IMG/VR virus record: IMGVR_UViG_3300037108_000012
Span: 1-64,000 of that record
DNA from: a virus
DNA: 64,000 bases
Strand: one strand, 5' to 3'
Part shown: positions 10,483-55,288 of the stretch, piece after piece
Layout of the letters: each line of letters opens with the position of its first letter
Position numbering within the stretch: position 1 is the stretch's first letter
Position numbers and translations under genes: made by a program
Notes under the pieces: model-generated
Database searches by the model: none
What the model was told of the DNA's origin: nothing
What the model saw: the letters and a program-made list of their open reading frames with translations, nothing else

Positions 10483-11631
10483 TCAGCGATTCAAATAAAC
10501 CGTTTCGCCAAAGGGGGCGGTATTCTGTTCATCGGTTGAAAGCCATATTACCGGCACATTGCAATTCTCAGGGAACGGACCTTCAAGGTCAGTAATCATA
10601 ACGGCGCAGACCGCTGTACCTTCGTCTTCAATCGCCTTCAGTACCGGCCTAAAATCAGTTCCACCGAAGCCGGTAGGCTTCCACGTCAAAGTATCGCCTT
10701 TATCAAAGCGGTCAACACTGGACACTTCGGAATCAAAGTAATAGACGTTTACAGCAAGTGGCGAAAGTTCATCTATGATACTTTCCAGTGTTCCACGGGC
10801 AAAAGATAAAGACTCTGCCGATACGCTGCCGCTTGTATCAATGCCTATTGCAATCTCTCCGAGTTCCCTTGACTCAAGAGCGGGCAGGTACAATCCTTGC
10901 GCGATATACCGGGAGTTCGGCCTGCTCCAAGAGTAATCGGAATTGCAGCGTTCTGAAAAGAAGCGGAGTAACAGGGAACGAACGTCGATCTTAGCCTTGA
11001 GTGAATCCTTGACCGTTCTTGCGAGTCCACCGGGCAATTTGCCGCACATCTTAGCAGCGTTCATGGCTTGACTAGCCTTCTGTTTCCATTCCTGCTCAGT
11101 GGGAGCGGGTTCACCGTCACTGTCGGGACCAGTGGGAGCGTCCCTTACTTCTCCGAGCGGGTCCGGCTTGCTTTGCCCTTGCGCTGGATTATTGCCCTGC
11201 CCTTGACCGTTCCCATTGCCGTTAGGTTGCGGCTTGTCATTCTGTTGAACGCGGGCATAATGCCATTCCGCCGATTTTCCCGAAACACTAGGAAACAATG
11301 ATCCAGCGGGCAAAGTAAAGCCGGAATCACGTAATTCTGAATTTATGGAATAATCACAGGCGATATTCCAATTTTTAGAATCGCGAGCTTCTCTCCGCCA
11401 TGGGTGACCCATTGCACAGTGAAACACTTCATGCGCGACTAACGCGGTAATCCTATCATGCGGTAAGGAATCAATAAAAGCTGGATTGTAGCCTAGGGAC
11501 CGCCCGTCAGTCCATGCGGTCTCACAGCTTGTATCCTCTTTGAACTTCAAGGATAAGGCAAGGGAACCAAAAAAAGGTTGGTCTAAAACTAACGAAACGC
11601 GGGCAGCGGTCATTTTGCTTTGAGCGGTCAT
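10483..11631 (-). CDS. HExxH metallopeptidase-like and VWA-like protein (DUF2201-type)
   Basis: A 382-residue protein starting MTAQSKMTAARVSLVLDQ behind GGGAAGG. The N-terminal domain has AHEVFHCAMGH near residues 67-77 (HExxH plus a distal His), a zinc-peptidase signature. A Gly/Asn/Gln-Pro-rich linker follows. The C-terminal VWA-like domain carries the metal-site motif GIDTSGS near 268-274 and ends with strand-rich sequence. This is the layout of DUF2201 proteins, which are usually encoded beside a MoxR-type AAA ATPase, as here. The pair probably acts as a chaperone or remodelling machine; the client is unknown. Confidence 0.85.
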   Translation of the reverse strand: MTAQSKMTAARVSLVLDQPFFGSLALSLKFKEDTSCETAWTDGRSLGYNPAFIDSLPHDRITALVAHEVFHCAMGHPWRREARDSKNWNIACDYSINSELRDSGFTLPAGSLFPSVSGKSAEWHYARVQQNDKPQPNGNGNGQGQGNNPAQGQSKPDPLGEVRDAPTGPDSDGEPAPTEQEWKQKASQAMNAAKMCGKLPGGLARTVKDSLKAKIDVRSLLLRFFSERCNSDYSWSRPNSRYIAQGLYLPALESRELGEIAIGIDTSGSVSAESLSFARGTLESIIDELSPLAVNVYYFDSEVSSVDRFDKGDTLTWKPTGFGGTDFRPVLKAIEDEGTAVCAVMITDLEGPFPENCNVPVIWLSTDEQNTAPFGETVYLNR

Positions 11632-11669
11632 AGAATCCTTCCCGTAATGCTTGCGTCCATGCTTGCTAA

Positions 11670-11699
11670 ACTGTATTCGATACGGCAAACGATTGTCAA
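11670..11699 (-). promoter_or_regulatory. Leftward sigma70-type promoter
   Basis: -35 TTGACA (11699-11694), an 18-bp spacer, and -10 TACAGT (11675-11670). It lies between the 11738 stop and the 11631 start, so the VWA gene can be expressed apart from its upstream partners. Confidence 0.6.
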
Positions 11700-11737
11700 A
11701 TGTGCCCGCATAACGGAGCGGGCAGGCCGATAGGAAT

Positions 11738-12607
11738 TTAGAAGATATTCCCATACGTTGCATTCATTGAATCGAGGATTGACTGCGCTTGCTTTGCGGT
11801 ATCATGCCGTACATCGGCATTGTCGCGCAAGGTCTGAGGTTCCGTGGAAGCGAGGAGTTCCGTTTGACGGCGGAGCGCTTCAAGTTGTGGATCTTCGGTG
11901 ACGTTCAAACGTGTAAGCACATCACACAATTCCCGCGCATTCCCGATAAGCGTATCGCGGAAAATTGCATCAGGAGAAGAGCATTTTTCGACTATCGCGG
12001 AAACTACTTTCCGCAAGCGGTCTACTGCTCCATCTTTGCCAGTCATCGCAGCGGTGAATGCTTGCGATACGCGGGCTTCAGTGCGGGCTGCAATGGTATC
12101 AATCTCAGATTGTGCAAGGGTAACGCGGAAGTCAGTACCTTGCGGAACTGGAGCGTATTCCACGGTCCATTCGTAGCGGTCTCGGATATTTGTAGGATAA
12201 TCGGAGTCCTGAAACATTCCGTTTAGAACGCGCTGCGCCTCAAGCCGATAGGATGGATACTCTGAAATGAAGTCAGACAAGAGACTATCGGCAGTGTGAA
12301 AGCCTTGCCGAATGGTATCAGTGTATGCCTGATAATTTTTCACCGGGAGCATTCTCCAACCGTCATCGGACCATGGCAGAGTTTGCGCATAGTTGAGCAC
12401 GCGCAAGTTGGCAATGTGCGAGACCAGCGCTTTGTAAGCTGGCGCATCGCCAGGTAACAGGCATTTATTGTACCTGCCCGCATCGAGAGTGGTTCCGTGA
12501 GCGGTTGCGGTATCCTGAGACACTTTGCGGTCATACTTGCGGGCGGACCATGCGCTGATACGCAAGCTAACGAGCATTGCGCGTGTATGAAGATCATTCG
12601 TGGTCAT
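11738..12607 (-). CDS. Conserved partner protein between AAA ATPase and VWA genes (289 aa)
   Basis: MTTNDLHTRAMLVSLRISAW... then SARKYDRKVSQDTATAHG. The central part (LPWSDDGWRMLPVKNYQAY) and helix-rich C-terminus resemble a protein commonly placed between phage AAA and VWA genes, perhaps DUF3150-like; that label is uncertain. AGGAG precedes the ATG. No catalytic motif is seen. It is probably a structural or adaptor subunit of the AAA-VWA system. Confidence 0.7.
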   Translation of the reverse strand: MTTNDLHTRAMLVSLRISAWSARKYDRKVSQDTATAHGTTLDAGRYNKCLLPGDAPAYKALVSHIANLRVLNYAQTLPWSDDGWRMLPVKNYQAYTDTIRQGFHTADSLLSDFISEYPSYRLEAQRVLNGMFQDSDYPTNIRDRYEWTVEYAPVPQGTDFRVTLAQSEIDTIAARTEARVSQAFTAAMTGKDGAVDRLRKVVSAIVEKCSSPDAIFRDTLIGNARELCDVLTRLNVTEDPQLEALRRQTELLASTEPQTLRDNADVRHDTAKQAQSILDSMNATYGNIF

Positions 12608-12666: not shown

Positions 12667-13701
12667 TTACTCTCTGCCGCTTATCAATTGCCCGATAGGA
12701 CCGCTATTCAAACGAACGAAAGAATCGGTGTACTGAATTTTTTCGTCACGGCGGATAGCGTCACGGATAAGCAAGACAGCGAATTCTCCATGCTGCGCTT
12801 CGGTGTAGAGGCGAGTGGCGTAGGTTGCGATACGGTTGAAGTTCATATCGTTTGCGCGGGCGGCGAGTCCTACCGATACAGCATACAATTCGCTAGGCTT
12901 GCTAGGAATTGCGGCAGTATCGGGAGCTAACAGAATCGCGTCAAGGTTGACAAGTGACCGATACATTGACCGAAAAGACAGGTACTCTAGCGCTGCGCCT
13001 TCTCCCACTGCGCCGGAAAATGCGGCAGACTCAATATCAGCGGGCAAGTTGAGCGCTTCGAGTTTGGCAACGTGCGACCACGTTCTTGGAACAGGCGAGT
13101 TTGTTAGGTCTGCCGTTGCTTGAAAGTTGCACAGAAGATCGGAGCGGAAGCGCAAAAATGCAATGAGCATAGGACTAACGCTATGAGCGTATGCCCATGT
13201 ACTCCAGTCATCGATATTGGCTTCAAGGTCAACGATACAGGCAAACCGGGATTTTACCGGCTCTAAAATCCCTGATACTCCAGCGCGGTCACTGCGCCGA
13301 TTCGTCGCGGCAACAAAGGTAATGCAATCCGGCAGAATGTGCCCGTTTACCCGTCGCGCAAGGATAAGTTGCATAAAGCTAGCTTGCACAGCAGGAGTTG
13401 CTTGACCTAGATCGTCAAGCAGCCAAACAGTAGGACGAACGGCATTTATTGCCGTTGCCAGTTCGCCAAACGGCAGGAAAGTGGCGGTGTTTCCATCGGC
13501 TTTCGGCCATGGGAGACCTTTAGCATCGGTAGGATCTGCTACGGCAGGATGTGAGATTAGAAGGTCTGCTCCCGCACTAGCAGCCGCTTGTGCGATAATG
13601 TCGGACTTTCCTACTCCCGGAGCACCTGTAATCAGTAAAGGCAAACGGGCAGGAATCATGGCTGCAAGTAACGCGGTCAATTGTTTTGGCGATACGCTCA
13701 T
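12667..13701 (-). CDS. MoxR-type AAA+ ATPase
   Basis: A 344-residue protein. Walker A is GAPGVGKS at about 26-33, Walker B VWLLDDLGQ near 92-100, sensor I FVAATNRRSD near 129-138, and an arginine-finger candidate (EPVKSRFA) lies near 147-154. These features define a MoxR/CobS-like AAA+ ATPase. Such proteins work with VWA-domain partners, and here the VWA protein lies two genes downstream. GAGGTGA precedes the ATG. Confidence 0.85.
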   Translation of the reverse strand: MSVSPKQLTALLAAMIPARLPLLITGAPGVGKSDIIAQAAASAGADLLISHPAVADPTDAKGLPWPKADGNTATFLPFGELATAINAVRPTVWLLDDLGQATPAVQASFMQLILARRVNGHILPDCITFVAATNRRSDRAGVSGILEPVKSRFACIVDLEANIDDWSTWAYAHSVSPMLIAFLRFRSDLLCNFQATADLTNSPVPRTWSHVAKLEALNLPADIESAAFSGAVGEGAALEYLSFRSMYRSLVNLDAILLAPDTAAIPSKPSELYAVSVGLAARANDMNFNRIATYATRLYTEAQHGEFAVLLIRDAIRRDEKIQYTDSFVRLNSGPIGQLISGRE

Positions 13702-32995: not shown

Positions 32996-35089
32996 GTGGC
33001 GAACGATGTAGAGACAGTTTCGTGGCAATGCCCGCCATGGGAAGCTCCCGCGAGCGTAAAAATAGCATGGGTAGAAGAATGTATTTCGGAGGGTGAGGGT
33101 TATTTATCTGGCTCCTCAGCCTATAGGAATCTGAATAGAAATCTGCGTGTGTTTGATGGAGTTTTTAACGATAAAACAAAAAGTACGCTAGTCACAAATC
33201 AGTTAAAATACAACATTCGGAAATTCTGCGAAACCCTTGCGGAAGTACGTGAAATTGCGGGGTTTAGCTCAGACGTACCTGCCTATAAAGCAATGGCAGA
33301 GATGCTTACAAAGGTAAGCAAATGTGTTTATTTAGAGTCAGATTTTCCCTACCAAATCCTAAAAGTTTTGCAGTACGCAACAGTTTGCGGCATTGGATAT
33401 TTATGGCCTAAAGTTCGTCCGACAGAGTACGGATTTGGACCAAGAGAAATGACATTTGATGCGCTAGGGCTATTAGATGTAGTTCCAGTCCAGATACCTG
33501 GGTCAAACGATATTCAAGATTGTTATGCTTGCACGGTTTATGATTATATGCCCATTGCAGAGGCGAGTGCGAAATTTCCTCTATTCCAAGGCCAACTTCA
33601 AACAGTTGGAAGAAATAATTACAAAACTTTAATTCAGGCACAGCGGCAGGATTTTGCTGCTACGTTTCGTTATGGAATGGTTGGGGATGTACAGAGCCGG
33701 AGTTTTGGAAACCTGTACACAGAGATAAGATACACATTTATTAGAGACATACGGATCAACACTACGGGAAAAGAGATGCAGATGGGTGATCCGGGAACGT
33801 CCTGGTTCTATAAAGTCCCGTCTATGGGACAGCCTATTTTTGGAGGGATGAGGGATGGAAAACCATACAGTCGTCCAGCGATGCCTGAAGATTGTAGAAT
33901 CTACCCTAACCTACGGCTCATCATTACGTCTTCAGGACTGGACAGGCCGATGTATGACGGTACTTCCTTCGATTGGGACTCCAAAATACCAGTCATTCAG
34001 TATACAGTGGATGATTGGGCATGGGAACCGCTAGGACGGTCATTAGTAGGGGATGTAGCGTCAATTGAGAACACGATTAGGAAGCATGAAAGGCTGATGG
34101 ATCAGGTTCTTACGGCAGGGATGAATCCTCCAATGGGGTACGATTTGGATACAAACGGAGGATCGGAGATTGAGCATTTTGATATATTTGAGCCTGATGT
34201 AAGACTAGGATTAGCGGGTGGAGAGCCGACAAAGACATTCCAATCGCTACTCCCAGATTCAGTGAGAGTGACTGGAATTAACGAAACGTACCTTAAATAC
34301 TTAGGAGATAAAGAGTTAGCGCAGCTTGGGTTGAATGATGTTGGGAACCTTGCCAACTTAAAAATCAACATGAACGGGGATTCTGCGGACAAACAATTAG
34401 AGGCAATCGGTCCTATCGCCAAGGGGATTGCGATGAGGATTGAAAAAGCCAATAAGCGCATAGGAGAGAGGATGAAGAGCCTCATTCCTCAATGGATGGA
34501 TGCTGCGCGTCTTATCGAATATGTAGGACCAGACCATATTGCTAAGGAAATGTTTGATTATAATCCAGACGATATGGTTCCTAGTCACTTGCCAGACGAA
34601 TTGTTTAGTGGACAATTCCCTACTACTCCATCCATGTACGACCGTCTGACCAGAGCGAAGTTCTTTGTAAAGAAGCTCCGACTTGTTTCTGTTCCTAGCA
34701 CACTTCTTAAAATCACACAGGCGCAAGAGCAATTGAAGTTTCTTCAACTGAAACGCACTCCCGGATGCCCGATCAGTTGGCTAACTGTCTTTAAAAAGTT
34801 AGACATAGCCAACCCTGAGCAGGAAATTGAGAAGAGTTTCAAAGAGCAAGCCCAACTTAAAAAGATGGAAATTATGAGCCAGATTGAGGTAATGAAAGCC
34901 CTTAAAGCGGCAGGAATCGATCCTTCTATTTTGATGGGTGGAGGACAAGAGGGTGGTCATGGAGGTAGTGGAGGAAAGAGCGGTGGACAGCATGGTGGTG
35001 GTCGTCCTCCATCGGGACAACGCCAACCTCGCATATCCCAAAAAGGAGCAGCGGGTGGAGTTCCACGTCAGGTCGTAAAAGAGAGCTAA
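32996..35089 (+). CDS. Portal-like protein (697 aa)
   Basis: GTG start. Size, position after terL and before the scaffold and capsid, and the C-terminal helical region (SRxLKITQAQEQLKFLQL and NPEQEIEKSFKEQAQLKKME) fit a portal. The extreme C-terminus is Gly/His-rich (GGGQEGGHGGSGG). No portal motif is unmistakable by eye, so the call rests mainly on context and size. The nearest Shine-Dalgarno (GGGAGG) is 13 nt away. Confidence 0.7.
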   Translation: MANDVETVSWQCPPWEAPASVKIAWVEECISEGEGYLSGSSAYRNLNRNLRVFDGVFNDKTKSTLVTNQLKYNIRKFCETLAEVREIAGFSSDVPAYKAMAEMLTKVSKCVYLESDFPYQILKVLQYATVCGIGYLWPKVRPTEYGFGPREMTFDALGLLDVVPVQIPGSNDIQDCYACTVYDYMPIAEASAKFPLFQGQLQTVGRNNYKTLIQAQRQDFAATFRYGMVGDVQSRSFGNLYTEIRYTFIRDIRINTTGKEMQMGDPGTSWFYKVPSMGQPIFGGMRDGKPYSRPAMPEDCRIYPNLRLIITSSGLDRPMYDGTSFDWDSKIPVIQYTVDDWAWEPLGRSLVGDVASIENTIRKHERLMDQVLTAGMNPPMGYDLDTNGGSEIEHFDIFEPDVRLGLAGGEPTKTFQSLLPDSVRVTGINETYLKYLGDKELAQLGLNDVGNLANLKINMNGDSADKQLEAIGPIAKGIAMRIEKANKRIGERMKSLIPQWMDAARLIEYVGPDHIAKEMFDYNPDDMVPSHLPDELFSGQFPTTPSMYDRLTRAKFFVKKLRLVSVPSTLLKITQAQEQLKFLQLKRTPGCPISWLTVFKKLDIANPEQEIEKSFKEQAQLKKMEIMSQIEVMKALKAAGIDPSILMGGGQEGGHGGSGGKSGGQHGGGRPPSGQRQPRISQKGAAGGVPRQVVKES

Positions 35090-51892: not shown

Positions 51893-52171
51893 GTGACCGT
51901 AACCGTGACCGTGATGGAACCAGCTTGCAAGGCGGATGCAGTTGAGGCCCAACGCGCCTCCAGAATCATCAACGGACTCTACAACGCCTGCCACATCAAA
52001 GCCATGCGTGCCATCCTGAAAGAGATTGGTAGACCTGCCTGGATATGGGCCAGCCGGAACCAGTTATTCGCGGCAATCATCACCGCGCGGCAGGACGCTT
52101 CCATGTTGAACCCGAAGCGCGACGCGGAGCTGGCAGAAAACCTGAAAAAGGCTATTGACAGATGGGTGTGA
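51893..52171 (+). CDS. Hypothetical protein (92 aa)
   Basis: GTG start behind AAAGGAGAC; MTVTVTVMEPACKADAVEAQ... helical. The -35 of the next promoter lies inside its 3' end. Unrecognised. Confidence 0.6.
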   Translation: MTVTVTVMEPACKADAVEAQRASRIINGLYNACHIKAMRAILKEIGRPAWIWASRNQLFAAIITARQDASMLNPKRDAELAENLKKAIDRWV

Positions 52172-52184
52172 TTGTGCTTACAAT
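52155..52184 (+). promoter_or_regulatory. Strong promoter giving a leaderless mRNA
   Basis: TTGACA (52155-52160), 18-bp spacer, TACAAT (52179-52184). The ATG at 52192 is 8 bp after the -10, so transcription should begin at or next to the start codon. No Shine-Dalgarno precedes it. Confidence 0.65.
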
Positions 52185-52191
52185 TGCATAC

Positions 52192-52326
52192 ATGGCTGAC
52201 GATTGCATGGTGCGAGTGCCCCGGCACCTGTTCGAGGAGATCAGGCGATTGGCCCACCCTGCGACAGCGGCGGCGTATTTGCGCCATGTGATCGAGCAGC
52301 ATATCGAGCAAGCACGGAAGAAGTGA
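52192..52326 (+). CDS. Ribbon-helix-helix-like microprotein, leaderless (44 aa)
   Basis: MADDCMVRVPRHLFEEIRRL... a strand (MVRVPRHL) then two helices (AAYLRHVIEQHIEQARKK), the ribbon-helix-helix layout. Directly upstream of the solitary CRISPR-type repeat; it may be the regulator of that locus, like an Aca protein, but similarity is only in size and type. Confidence 0.6.
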   Translation: MADDCMVRVPRHLFEEIRRLAHPATAAAYLRHVIEQHIEQARKK

Positions 52327-52412
52327 GACGGTCACGCAAGACGGGCAAACTTTCCATAGTGCGCAGTTGCCGCTTCGCAGTAGAGTTTGTAGGCTTCAAC
52401 AGCGGTGGAACG

Positions 52413-52655
52413 ATGGCCCAAACGAAAACTTTGTCGCCCCCCACGCGGGGGGCGTGGATTGAAACAATCATCGGCAGGGCGGTGAAAGGCCGTCTGACAG
52501 CATGGAAAGACAGCAACTTGCGCGGGAGCGCCCGGACTCCGAACAGGACATCGGGATCGGAACTCACCAAATGCGGCCCGCGCAAAGAGATTGAGTCGCT
52601 GGCGTGGATGTGCTTGCAGGCTGCGGCGAAAGCCGGATACCGACCACGACGGTAG
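52413..52655 (+). CDS. Doubtful frame across the CRISPR-type repeat (80 aa)
   Basis: MAQTKTLSPPTRGAWIETII... A GGTGGAAC lies before the ATG. SPPTRGAWIET is the usual spurious translation of type I-C repeats, so the frame may be only the repeat plus open GC-rich flank. Confidence 0.2.
   Translation: MAQTKTLSPPTRGAWIETIIGRAVKGRLTAWKDSNLRGSARTPNRTSGSELTKCGPRKEIESLAWMCLQAAAKAGYRPRR
52433..52465 (+). CRISPR. Solitary type I-C-like CRISPR repeat (33 bp)
   Basis: Begins GTCGCCCCCC, loop ACGC, then GGGGGGCGTGG and ends ATTGAAAC. A 7-bp GC stem and the GTGGATTGAAAC end are the hallmarks of subtype I-C repeats. Only one copy is present, with no cas genes in the window. Confidence 0.8.
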
Positions 52656-52717
52656 CCTGGAAATTAAGCGGCGGTGAGCAGCGATGCAAGCCGCCGCAAA
52701 GCAAAGGAGCAAGCATC

Positions 52718-52939
52718 ATGAAGAACTGGAAAACAACTACGGCGGGGCTGCTAGTGGCATTAGCATACGGCCTGCAAAACTATAACGGAGCAAACACTTG
52801 GCAGGGATATGCTGTATGTTTCTTCCTTGCTGCCGGTGGATTCTTCTCCAAGGATTACAACACGCATTCAACGGAGGCCCAAGTGCAAACGGCCACGGAT
52901 GATGCCAAGGTTGCCACGCTGGCTGCTGTCAACAAGTGA
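52718..52939 (+). CDS. Holin-like protein (73 aa)
   Basis: MKNWKTTTAGLLVALAYGLQ... with hydrophobic segments at about 9-20 and 30-43, and a charged polar C-terminus. Small, two membrane segments, in the lysis region. AAAGGAGC precedes the ATG. Confidence 0.6.
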   Translation: MKNWKTTTAGLLVALAYGLQNYNGANTWQGYAVCFFLAAGGFFSKDYNTHSTEAQVQTATDDAKVATLAAVNK

Positions 52940-54395: not shown

Positions 54396-54866
54396 TTATT
54401 CAAAACAAGCAAATTCTCCAAACAACTCTTTGGCCTTCTCGCAATATCTGAGATGAGCCTCTAGCTCAGAAGAGAAAGTTCCGAGACTGATTGCTTTACC
54501 ATTATGAAAAATGGTTGACCAATATCTTTTACCTTGCCTGTATGCCCCTTTTAGTGATCCGTCGTTTCTCTTTCCTTTAGAGTTTCTGTTATTTTGTGAT
54601 ACTGTTGCAATACGAAGATTAAATCTCCTATTATCTAAGGTATTATGATTTATATGATCCCCTTTGAGGGGAGAATCTTTTTCTATCCCAAGGATTATTC
54701 TGTGCATACGAATAGATGGACTATACCCTCCGTTTCTTTTATCGTTTCTCACGGCATAAAATAAGCCCCTTCTTGAATGCGCGTACCATTTCCACTGCAT
54801 CAGCCAATCGTAATCAGCGGCATCAACAATGGCAACCTTTATAACAAGGAGATGAGATGAATTCAA
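54396..54866 (-). CDS. HNH/AP2-type homing endonuclease, 5'-truncated (156 aa)
   Basis: HRIILGIEKDSPLKGDHINH then NTLDNRRFNLRIATVSQNNR is a clear HNH core, and KGAYRQGKRYWSTIFHNGKA is an AP2-like DNA-binding domain. The usual opening (IPLTQG-K-VALVDxxDYEWL) is cut: only VAIVDAADYDWL remains, and the only start codon is TTG 54866 inside the lysozyme start region. Likely inactive or starting further inside. Confidence 0.75.
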   Translation of the reverse strand: MNSSHLLVIKVAIVDAADYDWLMQWKWYAHSRRGLFYAVRNDKRNGGYSPSIRMHRIILGIEKDSPLKGDHINHNTLDNRRFNLRIATVSQNNRNSKGKRNDGSLKGAYRQGKRYWSTIFHNGKAISLGTFSSELEAHLRYCEKAKELFGEFACFE

Positions 54867-55288
54867 GCCAAAACTGCCGGAATCAGATAATGCAATGGGA
54901 AGGCACCAAATTGTCTATCTATTCAGATGCAAATGGTTTTCCAACAGTGGGGATAGGCCACAAACTCACGCCCGCAGAGATTGCCACGCACGCCTATGCG
55001 AATGGCATCACAACCGGGCAGGCTGTGATTCTCTTCGACGATGACATTGCGAGCTTCGATGCGCAGATCAATTCGCTCTTCGACGATAGACATTTGACGC
55101 AGGGGCAGTTCGATGCTCTTGTAAGTTTCTGCTACAACAATGGGTTTGGGCGACTGCGCACGATGCTCTCGCATGGGCTGGCGAATGTGCCGAACGAGTT
55201 GCCGCGTTGGGTGTACGCCGGGACGGTAAAGCTCCCCGGCCTGGTCACGCGGCGTGCGCAAGAGGTTGCGTGGTGGAATCAGAAGTAA
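54857..55288 (+). CDS. GH24 (T4-type) lysozyme, endolysin
   Basis: 143 residues. The catalytic Glu sits in MQWEG, followed by SIYSDANGFPTVGIGHKLTP, with the Asp and Thr of the E-8-D-5-T triad. ALVSFCYNNGFG is typical too. It hydrolyses peptidoglycan for release. No signal peptide, so it needs a holin. AAGGAG precedes the ATG; this site overlaps the start of the opposed HNH gene. Confidence 0.92.
   Translation: MNSSQNCRNQIMQWEGTKLSIYSDANGFPTVGIGHKLTPAEIATHAYANGITTGQAVILFDDDIASFDAQINSLFDDRHLTQGQFDALVSFCYNNGFGRLRTMLSHGLANVPNELPRWVYAGTVKLPGLVTRRAQEVAWWNQK

What the first reader, a model, noticed from the sequence alone, without database searches (positions are those of the whole stretch)
52433..52465. 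Solitary type I-C-like CRISPR repeat in a phage lysis region
The 33-bp sequence has the subtype I-C repeat structure (GTCGC start, 7-bp GC stem around ACGC, GTGGATTGAAAC end). It is a single copy with no array and no cas genes in the window. Established knowledge: some phages carry solitary repeat units transcribed as RNA anti-CRISPRs that sequester Cas proteins. Inference: this one could do so against a type I-C host system.
Basis: partly seen in the sequence, partly recalled or inferred. Interest (0 to 1): 0.85.

Follow-up and report, generated by a model that had tools for sequence, protein, structure and literature searches.

The report
Captured CRISPR repeat in Acidobacteria phage
A soil-bacterium virus carries one perfect copy of the repeat from its hosts' own CRISPR immune system, most likely picked up by recombination where that system attacked it; repeats like this are known to work as RNA decoys against the immune system, and the sequence around this one and many others hints at how viruses get them.

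Summary
One intact 33-nt type I-C repeat lies at 52433-52465 (+), alone in the 72.9-kb virus record. It is 33/33 identical to arrays in Acidobacteriaceae genomes, one beside a full I-C cas operon, and the phage's portal protein matches only Acidobacteriaceae phages and genomes. It is thus a solitary repeat unit (SRU), the class that includes RNA anti-CRISPRs (Racr; RacrIC1 is proven). Activity here is untested.

New point: the repeat abuts a 35-nt protospacer-like stretch with the I-C PAM (TTC, 52395-52397), inside a truncated HNH gene. Across 97 solitary I-C repeats in IMG/VR, TTC lies 33-36 nt (one spacer length) upstream 32 times against 6.8 expected (P about 1e-12). Ten repeats have flush direct duplications (0.8 expected), eight of them starting exactly after TTC, TTT or CTC. 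This fits capture of spacer-repeat-spacer from the host array by recombination at targeted protospacers. For this window the evidence is one-sided: no matching host spacer or empty site was found, and assembly chimerism is unlikely but not excluded.

The parts
52433..52465 (+). Solitary type I-C CRISPR repeat (SRU), 33 nt
   Evidence: Exact match to Acidobacteriaceae I-C arrays; single copy; hairpin fold
52395..52397 (+). TTC, the type I-C PAM, 35 nt upstream of the repeat
   Evidence: Sequence; chance for one locus at distance 33-36 is about 7%, but 32 hits against 6.8 expected over 97 SRUs
52398..52432 (+). 35-nt protospacer-like stretch 'S' flush with the repeat
   Evidence: Length within the I-C spacer range seen in arrays (32-37, mode 34); no matching spacer in 398 family genomes at up to 3 mismatches
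52335..52433 (-). C-terminal remnant of an HNH endonuclease (QSFRLGHRSTAVEAYKLYCEAATAHYGKFARLA), truncated at the repeat boundary
   Evidence: 40% identity over 30 aa to the window's own HNH protein, E 4e-6; weak tblastn hits (best E 1e-2) in 172 phage records, most of those listed annotated as HNH or homing endonucleases
52466..52499 (+). Sequence after the repeat handle (position of a crRNA spacer, 'X')
   Evidence: No PAM-flanked match near host cas genes, no match in 7 Acidobacteriaceae genomes, one 20-nt viral match that does not extend and lacks a PAM
52155..52184 (+). Predicted sigma-70-type promoter TTGACA-18-TACAAT (11/12)
   Evidence: Consensus scan; not evidence of function by itself
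52192..52326 (+). 44-aa ORF, possibly a ribbon-helix-helix-like regulator, just downstream of the predicted promoter
   Evidence: ORF; no HMM hit; the RHH reading is inference
52718..52939 (+). 73-aa small protein conserved in related phages, holin-like by position and composition
   Evidence: 53% and 51% identity in L032 and L031; no HMM hit; holin is inference
54857..55288 (+). Phage lysozyme (endolysin)
   Evidence: PF00959 E 2.8e-27

Best explanation
The 33-mer is a repeat of an Acidobacteriaceae type I-C CRISPR array that the phage acquired by recombination with that array. The phage protospacer S (52398-52432, PAM TTC, in an HNH gene) recombined with the same sequence present as a spacer in the host array; the adjoining repeat came in flush with S, and the rest of the HNH gene was lost at the right-hand junction. 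The repeat was kept intact in a non-coding stretch between a predicted promoter and the lysis genes. If transcribed, its hairpin would be bound and cut by the host Cas5d, and the product would occupy Cas5d/Cas7 without a useful guide: it would work as an RNA anti-CRISPR of the Racr type. Shown here: repeat identity, solitude, host family, hairpin, TTC at one spacer length, truncated HNH gene, class-wide PAM and duplication signatures. Inferred: the recombination event at this locus, transcription, Cas binding and immune inhibition.
For: Identity to host arrays with a full I-C cas operon. Host family from the portal protein: only Tunturiibacter phages among 50,697 phage records, and 2 of 300 family genomes. 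TTC at 33-36 nt upstream of 97 viral I-C SRUs: 32 against 6.75 expected, top of 64 trinucleotides, P 8e-13; leaving out the five loci that suggested the idea, 28 against 6.4, P 1.4e-10. The distances equal spacer lengths. The rest are enriched in TTT (19 against 6.0, P 1.4e-5), with no -10 box pattern. Flush direct duplications across the repeat in 10 of 97 against 0.8 expected, with TTC x4, TTT x3, CTC x1 before the left copy. A type I-F example, L236: CC + 32 nt + repeat + diverged second copy. HNH homology stops at the repeat boundary. The relatives compared (L031, L032, the G232 contig, the Tunturi_1 region) lack the repeat. Racr mechanism and proven RacrIC1: PMC10651486. Stems kept in 91 of 97 SRUs.
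Against: The TTC here has a 7% chance of being accidental and there is no duplication at this locus (P 0.31). No host spacer matching S was found. None of the isolate-derived or finished-sequence solitary repeats I checked (about 6) has the PAM signature; at the class rate this has about a 10% chance, so an assembly contribution is not excluded. No transcript data; the promoter is a consensus match about 250 nt away; no anti-CRISPR gene recognised nearby.
Confidence: 0.5

Rival explanations
1. Non-functional scar: the repeat was captured from the host array as above but has no anti-CRISPR role and has simply not yet decayed.
For: 33/33 identity suggests recent arrival; relatives lack it; the capture signature of the class needs no function.
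Against: SRUs as a class keep their stems, lie outside genes (inside a gene 16 of 97 against 67% of random positions) and near gene starts; nine tested Racr candidates inhibited immunity (PMC10651486).
Confidence: 0.3
2. Assembly chimera: host array and phage share the spacer/protospacer sequence, and the metagenome assembler joined the phage to an array repeat through it.
For: Would give the same PAM-S-R geometry; L083 and L026 have (near-)perfect duplications; the isolate-derived cases checked lack the signature.
Against: In most duplications the two copies differ (L012, L057, L068, L113, L129, L133; L236 in type I-F), which one locus read twice would not show. S lies in a gene in only 6 of 31 TTC cases against 69% of random positions. 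Some SRUs recur in contigs of different metagenomes. Here there is no duplication, so the simple graph loop does not apply.
Confidence: 0.1
3. Mini-CRISPR or regulatory guide: the repeat with the downstream 34 nt makes a crRNA that uses host Cascade against another virus or against the cas promoter.
For: The repeat is in crRNA orientation with a free downstream sequence; virus mini-arrays exist (PMC6858448, title and abstract only).
Against: No second repeat; the downstream sequence has no match in 50,697 phages, only a non-extending 20-nt viral match without PAM, and no PAM-flanked seed near host cas genes above shuffled controls.
Confidence: 0.05
4. Attachment site: the repeat is attP for integration into host CRISPR repeats.
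For: Integration into CRISPR arrays through repeat-like sequences is mentioned in PMC10651486; L242 shows an integrase gene beside a leader-repeat in Monoglobus.
Against: No tyrosine or serine recombinase in the record; position in the lysis region.
Confidence: 0.02
5. Part of a protein gene, or chance sequence.
For: Open frames run through it on both strands.
Against: None has a family hit; the readings are the usual translations of this repeat, also seen in the host array; chance about 1e-15.
Confidence: 0.01

Closest known systems
Racr / solitary repeat units, in particular RacrIC1 (Camara-Wilpert 2023, PMC10651486)
   Same: Single cas-less I-C repeat in a phage, non-coding, intact hairpin, subtype matches the host family, predicted promoter within about 250 nt
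   Different: No adjacent acr gene recognised; about 240 nt of transcript before the repeat; activity untested; a truncated HNH gene and a PAM-flanked protospacer-like stretch abut it
Virus mini-CRISPR arrays (PMC6858448)
   Same: Host-identical repeat in a virus
   Different: No spacer between two repeats and no identified target
Spacer-target recombination of staphylococcal phages with CRISPR loci (Varble 2019; from my own knowledge, not read here)
   Same: Recombination through spacer/protospacer identity
   Different: There it transferred CRISPR-adjacent genes; here a bare repeat would remain in the phage
Tunturiibacter phages Tunturi_1/2 (PP887698, PP885685)
   Same: 29.5% identical portal protein over 85%, similar order of structural, lysis and HNH genes
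   Different: The region of Tunturi_1 examined (1-40000) has no repeat

Membership tests
Solitary repeat unit (SRU) as defined in PMC10651486 | At least 90% identity and coverage to a known CRISPR repeat | tested here: met
   33/33 to Acidobacteriaceae arrays
Solitary repeat unit (SRU) as defined in PMC10651486 | No further full or partial repeat (>70%) within 100 bp | tested here: met
   Best 33-nt 48%, 20-nt 60%, 16-nt 69% within 150 nt
Solitary repeat unit (SRU) as defined in PMC10651486 | Intergenic | tested here: met
   No family-supported gene over it; Prodigal itself was not available
Racr (RNA anti-CRISPR), type I-C | Subtype matches a CRISPR-Cas system of the host | tested here: met
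   Family-level host assignment and an I-C cas operon beside the identical repeat; the actual host strain is unknown
Racr (RNA anti-CRISPR), type I-C | Promoter within 250 bp upstream | tested here: inconclusive
   TTGACA-18-TACAAT ends 249 nt upstream; prediction only
Racr (RNA anti-CRISPR), type I-C | Expressed as RNA and bound or processed by Cas proteins | not testable with these tools
   No transcript or binding data
Racr (RNA anti-CRISPR), type I-C | Inhibits CRISPR interference | not testable with these tools
   Needs an assay
Mini-CRISPR array | At least one spacer between two repeats | tested here: not met
Phage attachment site in CRISPR repeat | Site-specific recombinase in the element | tested here: not met
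   (record may be incomplete)

The most novel reading that the evidence does not exclude
Viral solitary CRISPR repeats, this one included, are born as 'spacer-repeat-spacer' fragments of the host array, captured by recombination at protospacers that the host system targets. The attack itself supplies the raw material for RNA anti-CRISPRs, which would explain why repeats, but not Cas proteins, were so widely recruited.
Probability: 0.55. Interest if true: 0.82.

Novelty: new member of a known kind. Interest (0 to 1): 0.62.

Why it matters
As an object it extends the known Racr/SRU class to phages of Acidobacteriaceae, abundant soil bacteria with few known phages. The larger point is the flank signature: a PAM one spacer length upstream, and PAM-anchored duplications across the repeat. 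A recent review calls it an enigma why pieces of CRISPR RNA were broadly recruited as inhibitors whereas Cas proteins were not (PMC11656645). If SRUs are products of spacer/protospacer recombination, the origin of Racrs can be tested in an ordinary laboratory phage experiment, and each SRU records which protospacer had been targeted.

Tried and rejected
Spacers of the Acidobacteriaceae arrays against this phage: no match. S in 398 family genomes: none. X in 7 genomes: none. X in viral contigs: one chance-like 20-nt match in a tape-measure-like gene, no PAM, no extension. Guide to the host cas promoter: no better than shuffled sequence. Duplication at this locus: not significant. Relatives by holin-like protein and endolysin: none seen with the repeat; a search with a tail-region protein found no relatives. 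Promoter explanation for the TTC at -34: no -10 box enrichment. Second CRISPR type (I-F): only 16 usable units, some of them array ends; one clear case (L236), so supportive but weak. Isolate phages and plasmids for an empty-site comparison: no suitable PAM-bearing case. Chance and protein-gene readings rejected.

Full report
What is there. The sequence GTCGCCCCCCACGCGGGGGGCGTGGATTGAAAC is at 52433-52465 (+) as reported. The window is part of a 72,887-bp IMG/VR virus record that holds no other copy, and the flanks hold no partial second repeat. As RNA it forms GU, an 8-bp stem, an ACGC loop and the 11-nt tail UGGAUUGAAAC, which is the anatomy of type I-C repeats, whose processing by Cas5d leaves an 11-nt 5' handle (established knowledge). 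No Rfam family matches.

Whose repeat it is. In 84,980 species genomes the exact 33-mer occurs in eight contigs: six from Acidobacteriaceae or Acidobacteria MAGs (five genomes), all with further copies in arrays, and two from Desulfurivibrio and Desulfatirhabdium. One of the MAG contigs (L177) carries 14 copies and a complete I-C operon, cas3, cas5d, cas8c, cas7, cas4, cas1, cas2, by order and translation, with Cas5d confirmed by TIGR01876 and PF09704. In a sample of 300 genomes of that family the repeat (up to one mismatch) is in five.

Whose phage it is. The portal protein (32996-35089) has only two matches among 50,697 phage records, both phages of Tunturiibacter (Acidobacteriaceae), and matches 2 of 300 genomes of the same family, one at 63% identity. 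Gene order resembles Tunturi_1. The host family therefore agrees with the family that owns the repeat.

Surroundings. The repeat lies in a 391-nt stretch without family-supported genes, between a 44-aa ORF (52192-52326) and a 73-aa small protein (52718-52939) conserved in related phages; a lysozyme follows at 54857. A near-consensus promoter TTGACA-18-TACAAT ends at 52184. On the minus strand, 52433-52335 reads as the C-terminus of an HNH endonuclease. The homology stops at the repeat; the part of the HNH gene that should continue to the right is missing. The related phages L031 and L032, the contig of G232 and the Tunturi_1 region lack the repeat.

A signature shared by viral I-C repeats. Scans of IMG/VR for I-C-like repeats gave more than 119 stretches, of which I kept 97 solitary units (at least one, L106, looks like an array end). 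While checking their flanks I saw in a few cases the I-C PAM TTC (established knowledge) one spacer length upstream. Tested on all 97, TTC lies 33-36 nt before the repeat 32 times (31 units) against 6.75 expected from neighbouring positions; it is the most enriched of 64 trinucleotides (P 8e-13; next is TTT), and the per-distance counts from 28 to 41 nt are 1,2,1,0,0,6,13,6,7,1,2,0,2,2. Without the five loci that suggested the idea it is 28 against 6.4. Spacers in the I-C arrays fetched here are mostly 32-37 nt, mode 34. The composition around the TTC is otherwise flat and there is no -10 box pattern, so it is not a promoter. The units without TTC are enriched in TTT at the same place (19 against 6.0). 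In this window TTC is at 52395-52397, 35 nt before the repeat; a single such hit has about a 7% chance.

The other side. Ten of 97 repeats are flanked by flush direct duplications, 4 to 35 nt long, where shuffled pairings give 0.8. The three bases before the left-hand copy are TTC (4), TTT (3), CTC (1), TTG (1) and ATT (1; L083, where TTC sits one base further). So in these cases the sequence following the repeat begins at a PAM-adjacent position of the phage, as a spacer would. Both sides together read as spacer-repeat-spacer, with both spacers taken from the same short phage region. A type I-F unit (L236) shows the same with its own PAM and length: CC, 32 nt, repeat, diverged second copy.

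Interpretation. The simplest account is recombination between a targeted phage protospacer and the matching spacer in the host array, which brings the neighbouring repeat into the phage and returns to the phage either in a second matching spacer or by another junction. When the two protospacers overlap, a duplication results; when they are apart, the interval is deleted, and only tolerable deletions survive, which would explain why SRUs lie outside genes (S inside a gene in 6 of 31 TTC cases against 69% of random positions). The window fits the deletion form: S in the HNH gene, the rest of that gene gone. This step is inference; the matching spacer was not found, nor an empty site.

Could it be an assembly chimera? 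A shared spacer could also mislead an assembler. Against this: most duplicated copies differ from each other, the positions avoid genes, and some units recur in contigs from different metagenomes. For it: none of about six isolate-derived or finished solitary repeats has the signature. I give it about 10% for this locus.

Function. PMC10651486 shows that SRUs act as RNA anti-CRISPRs, including RacrIC1 against type I-C, and lists 2,103 viral SRUs. The window unit meets the SRU criteria and the subtype-match criterion; promoter evidence is a prediction; expression and inhibition are untested. The stems of the 97 units are kept (91 with at least five contiguous pairs; inner pairs 382 of 473 against 289 with shuffled partners), though this may in part be inherited from host repeats. 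I put a Racr-like role at about one half, with a non-functional recent scar as the main rival. Guide-RNA and attachment-site readings found no support.

Novelty. The object is a new member of a known kind. The capture signature is, to my knowledge and by the papers I could search, not described; the Racr paper's main text does not contain the word stem 'recombin'. Absence from this library is not proof of absence elsewhere.

Noticed in passing
L035, L045, L051, L065, L066, L071, L073, L075, L076, L111, L118, L137 and others: The repeat is followed directly by AAAC in 14 of 97 solitary I-C units (0.4 expected), sometimes as (AAAC)n; no explanation.
   Followed up: partly
97 solitary I-C units in IMG/VR loci: Solitary repeats lie close upstream of gene starts on the same strand: 39 of 97 within 150 nt against 16% of random positions, often in the 5' leader; a cis-acting role through Cas5d cleavage of the mRNA is conceivable.
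   Followed up: partly
L041/L107, L045+L051, L067, L019+L132: Some viruses carry two or three solitary repeats, with different stems or with the same one.
   Followed up: no
window 52667-52720 and L032 4777-4830: Conserved GCGGCGG...CCGCCGC hairpin just before the small 73-aa gene in related phages.
   Followed up: no
L247-L249 (Streptococcus satellite phages Javan145, 89, 130): A solitary I-C-like repeat near the integrase gene, present in at least seven satellite phages; no PAM signature.
   Followed up: partly
L250 (Pseudomonas phage IME307): A I-F-like solitary repeat followed by a second partial repeat; a related phage (LESphi3) has an annotated anti-CRISPR gene at the matching place.
   Followed up: no
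L242 (Monoglobus, NZ_OY725741): CRISPR leader-like sequence and repeat directly before a tyrosine integrase gene, as if an element had integrated at the array.
   Followed up: no
window 10483-11763 and 12667-13701 (-): Paired DUF2201/VWA-like protein and AAA_5 ATPase (MoxR-VWA type), of unclear role in a phage.
   Followed up: no
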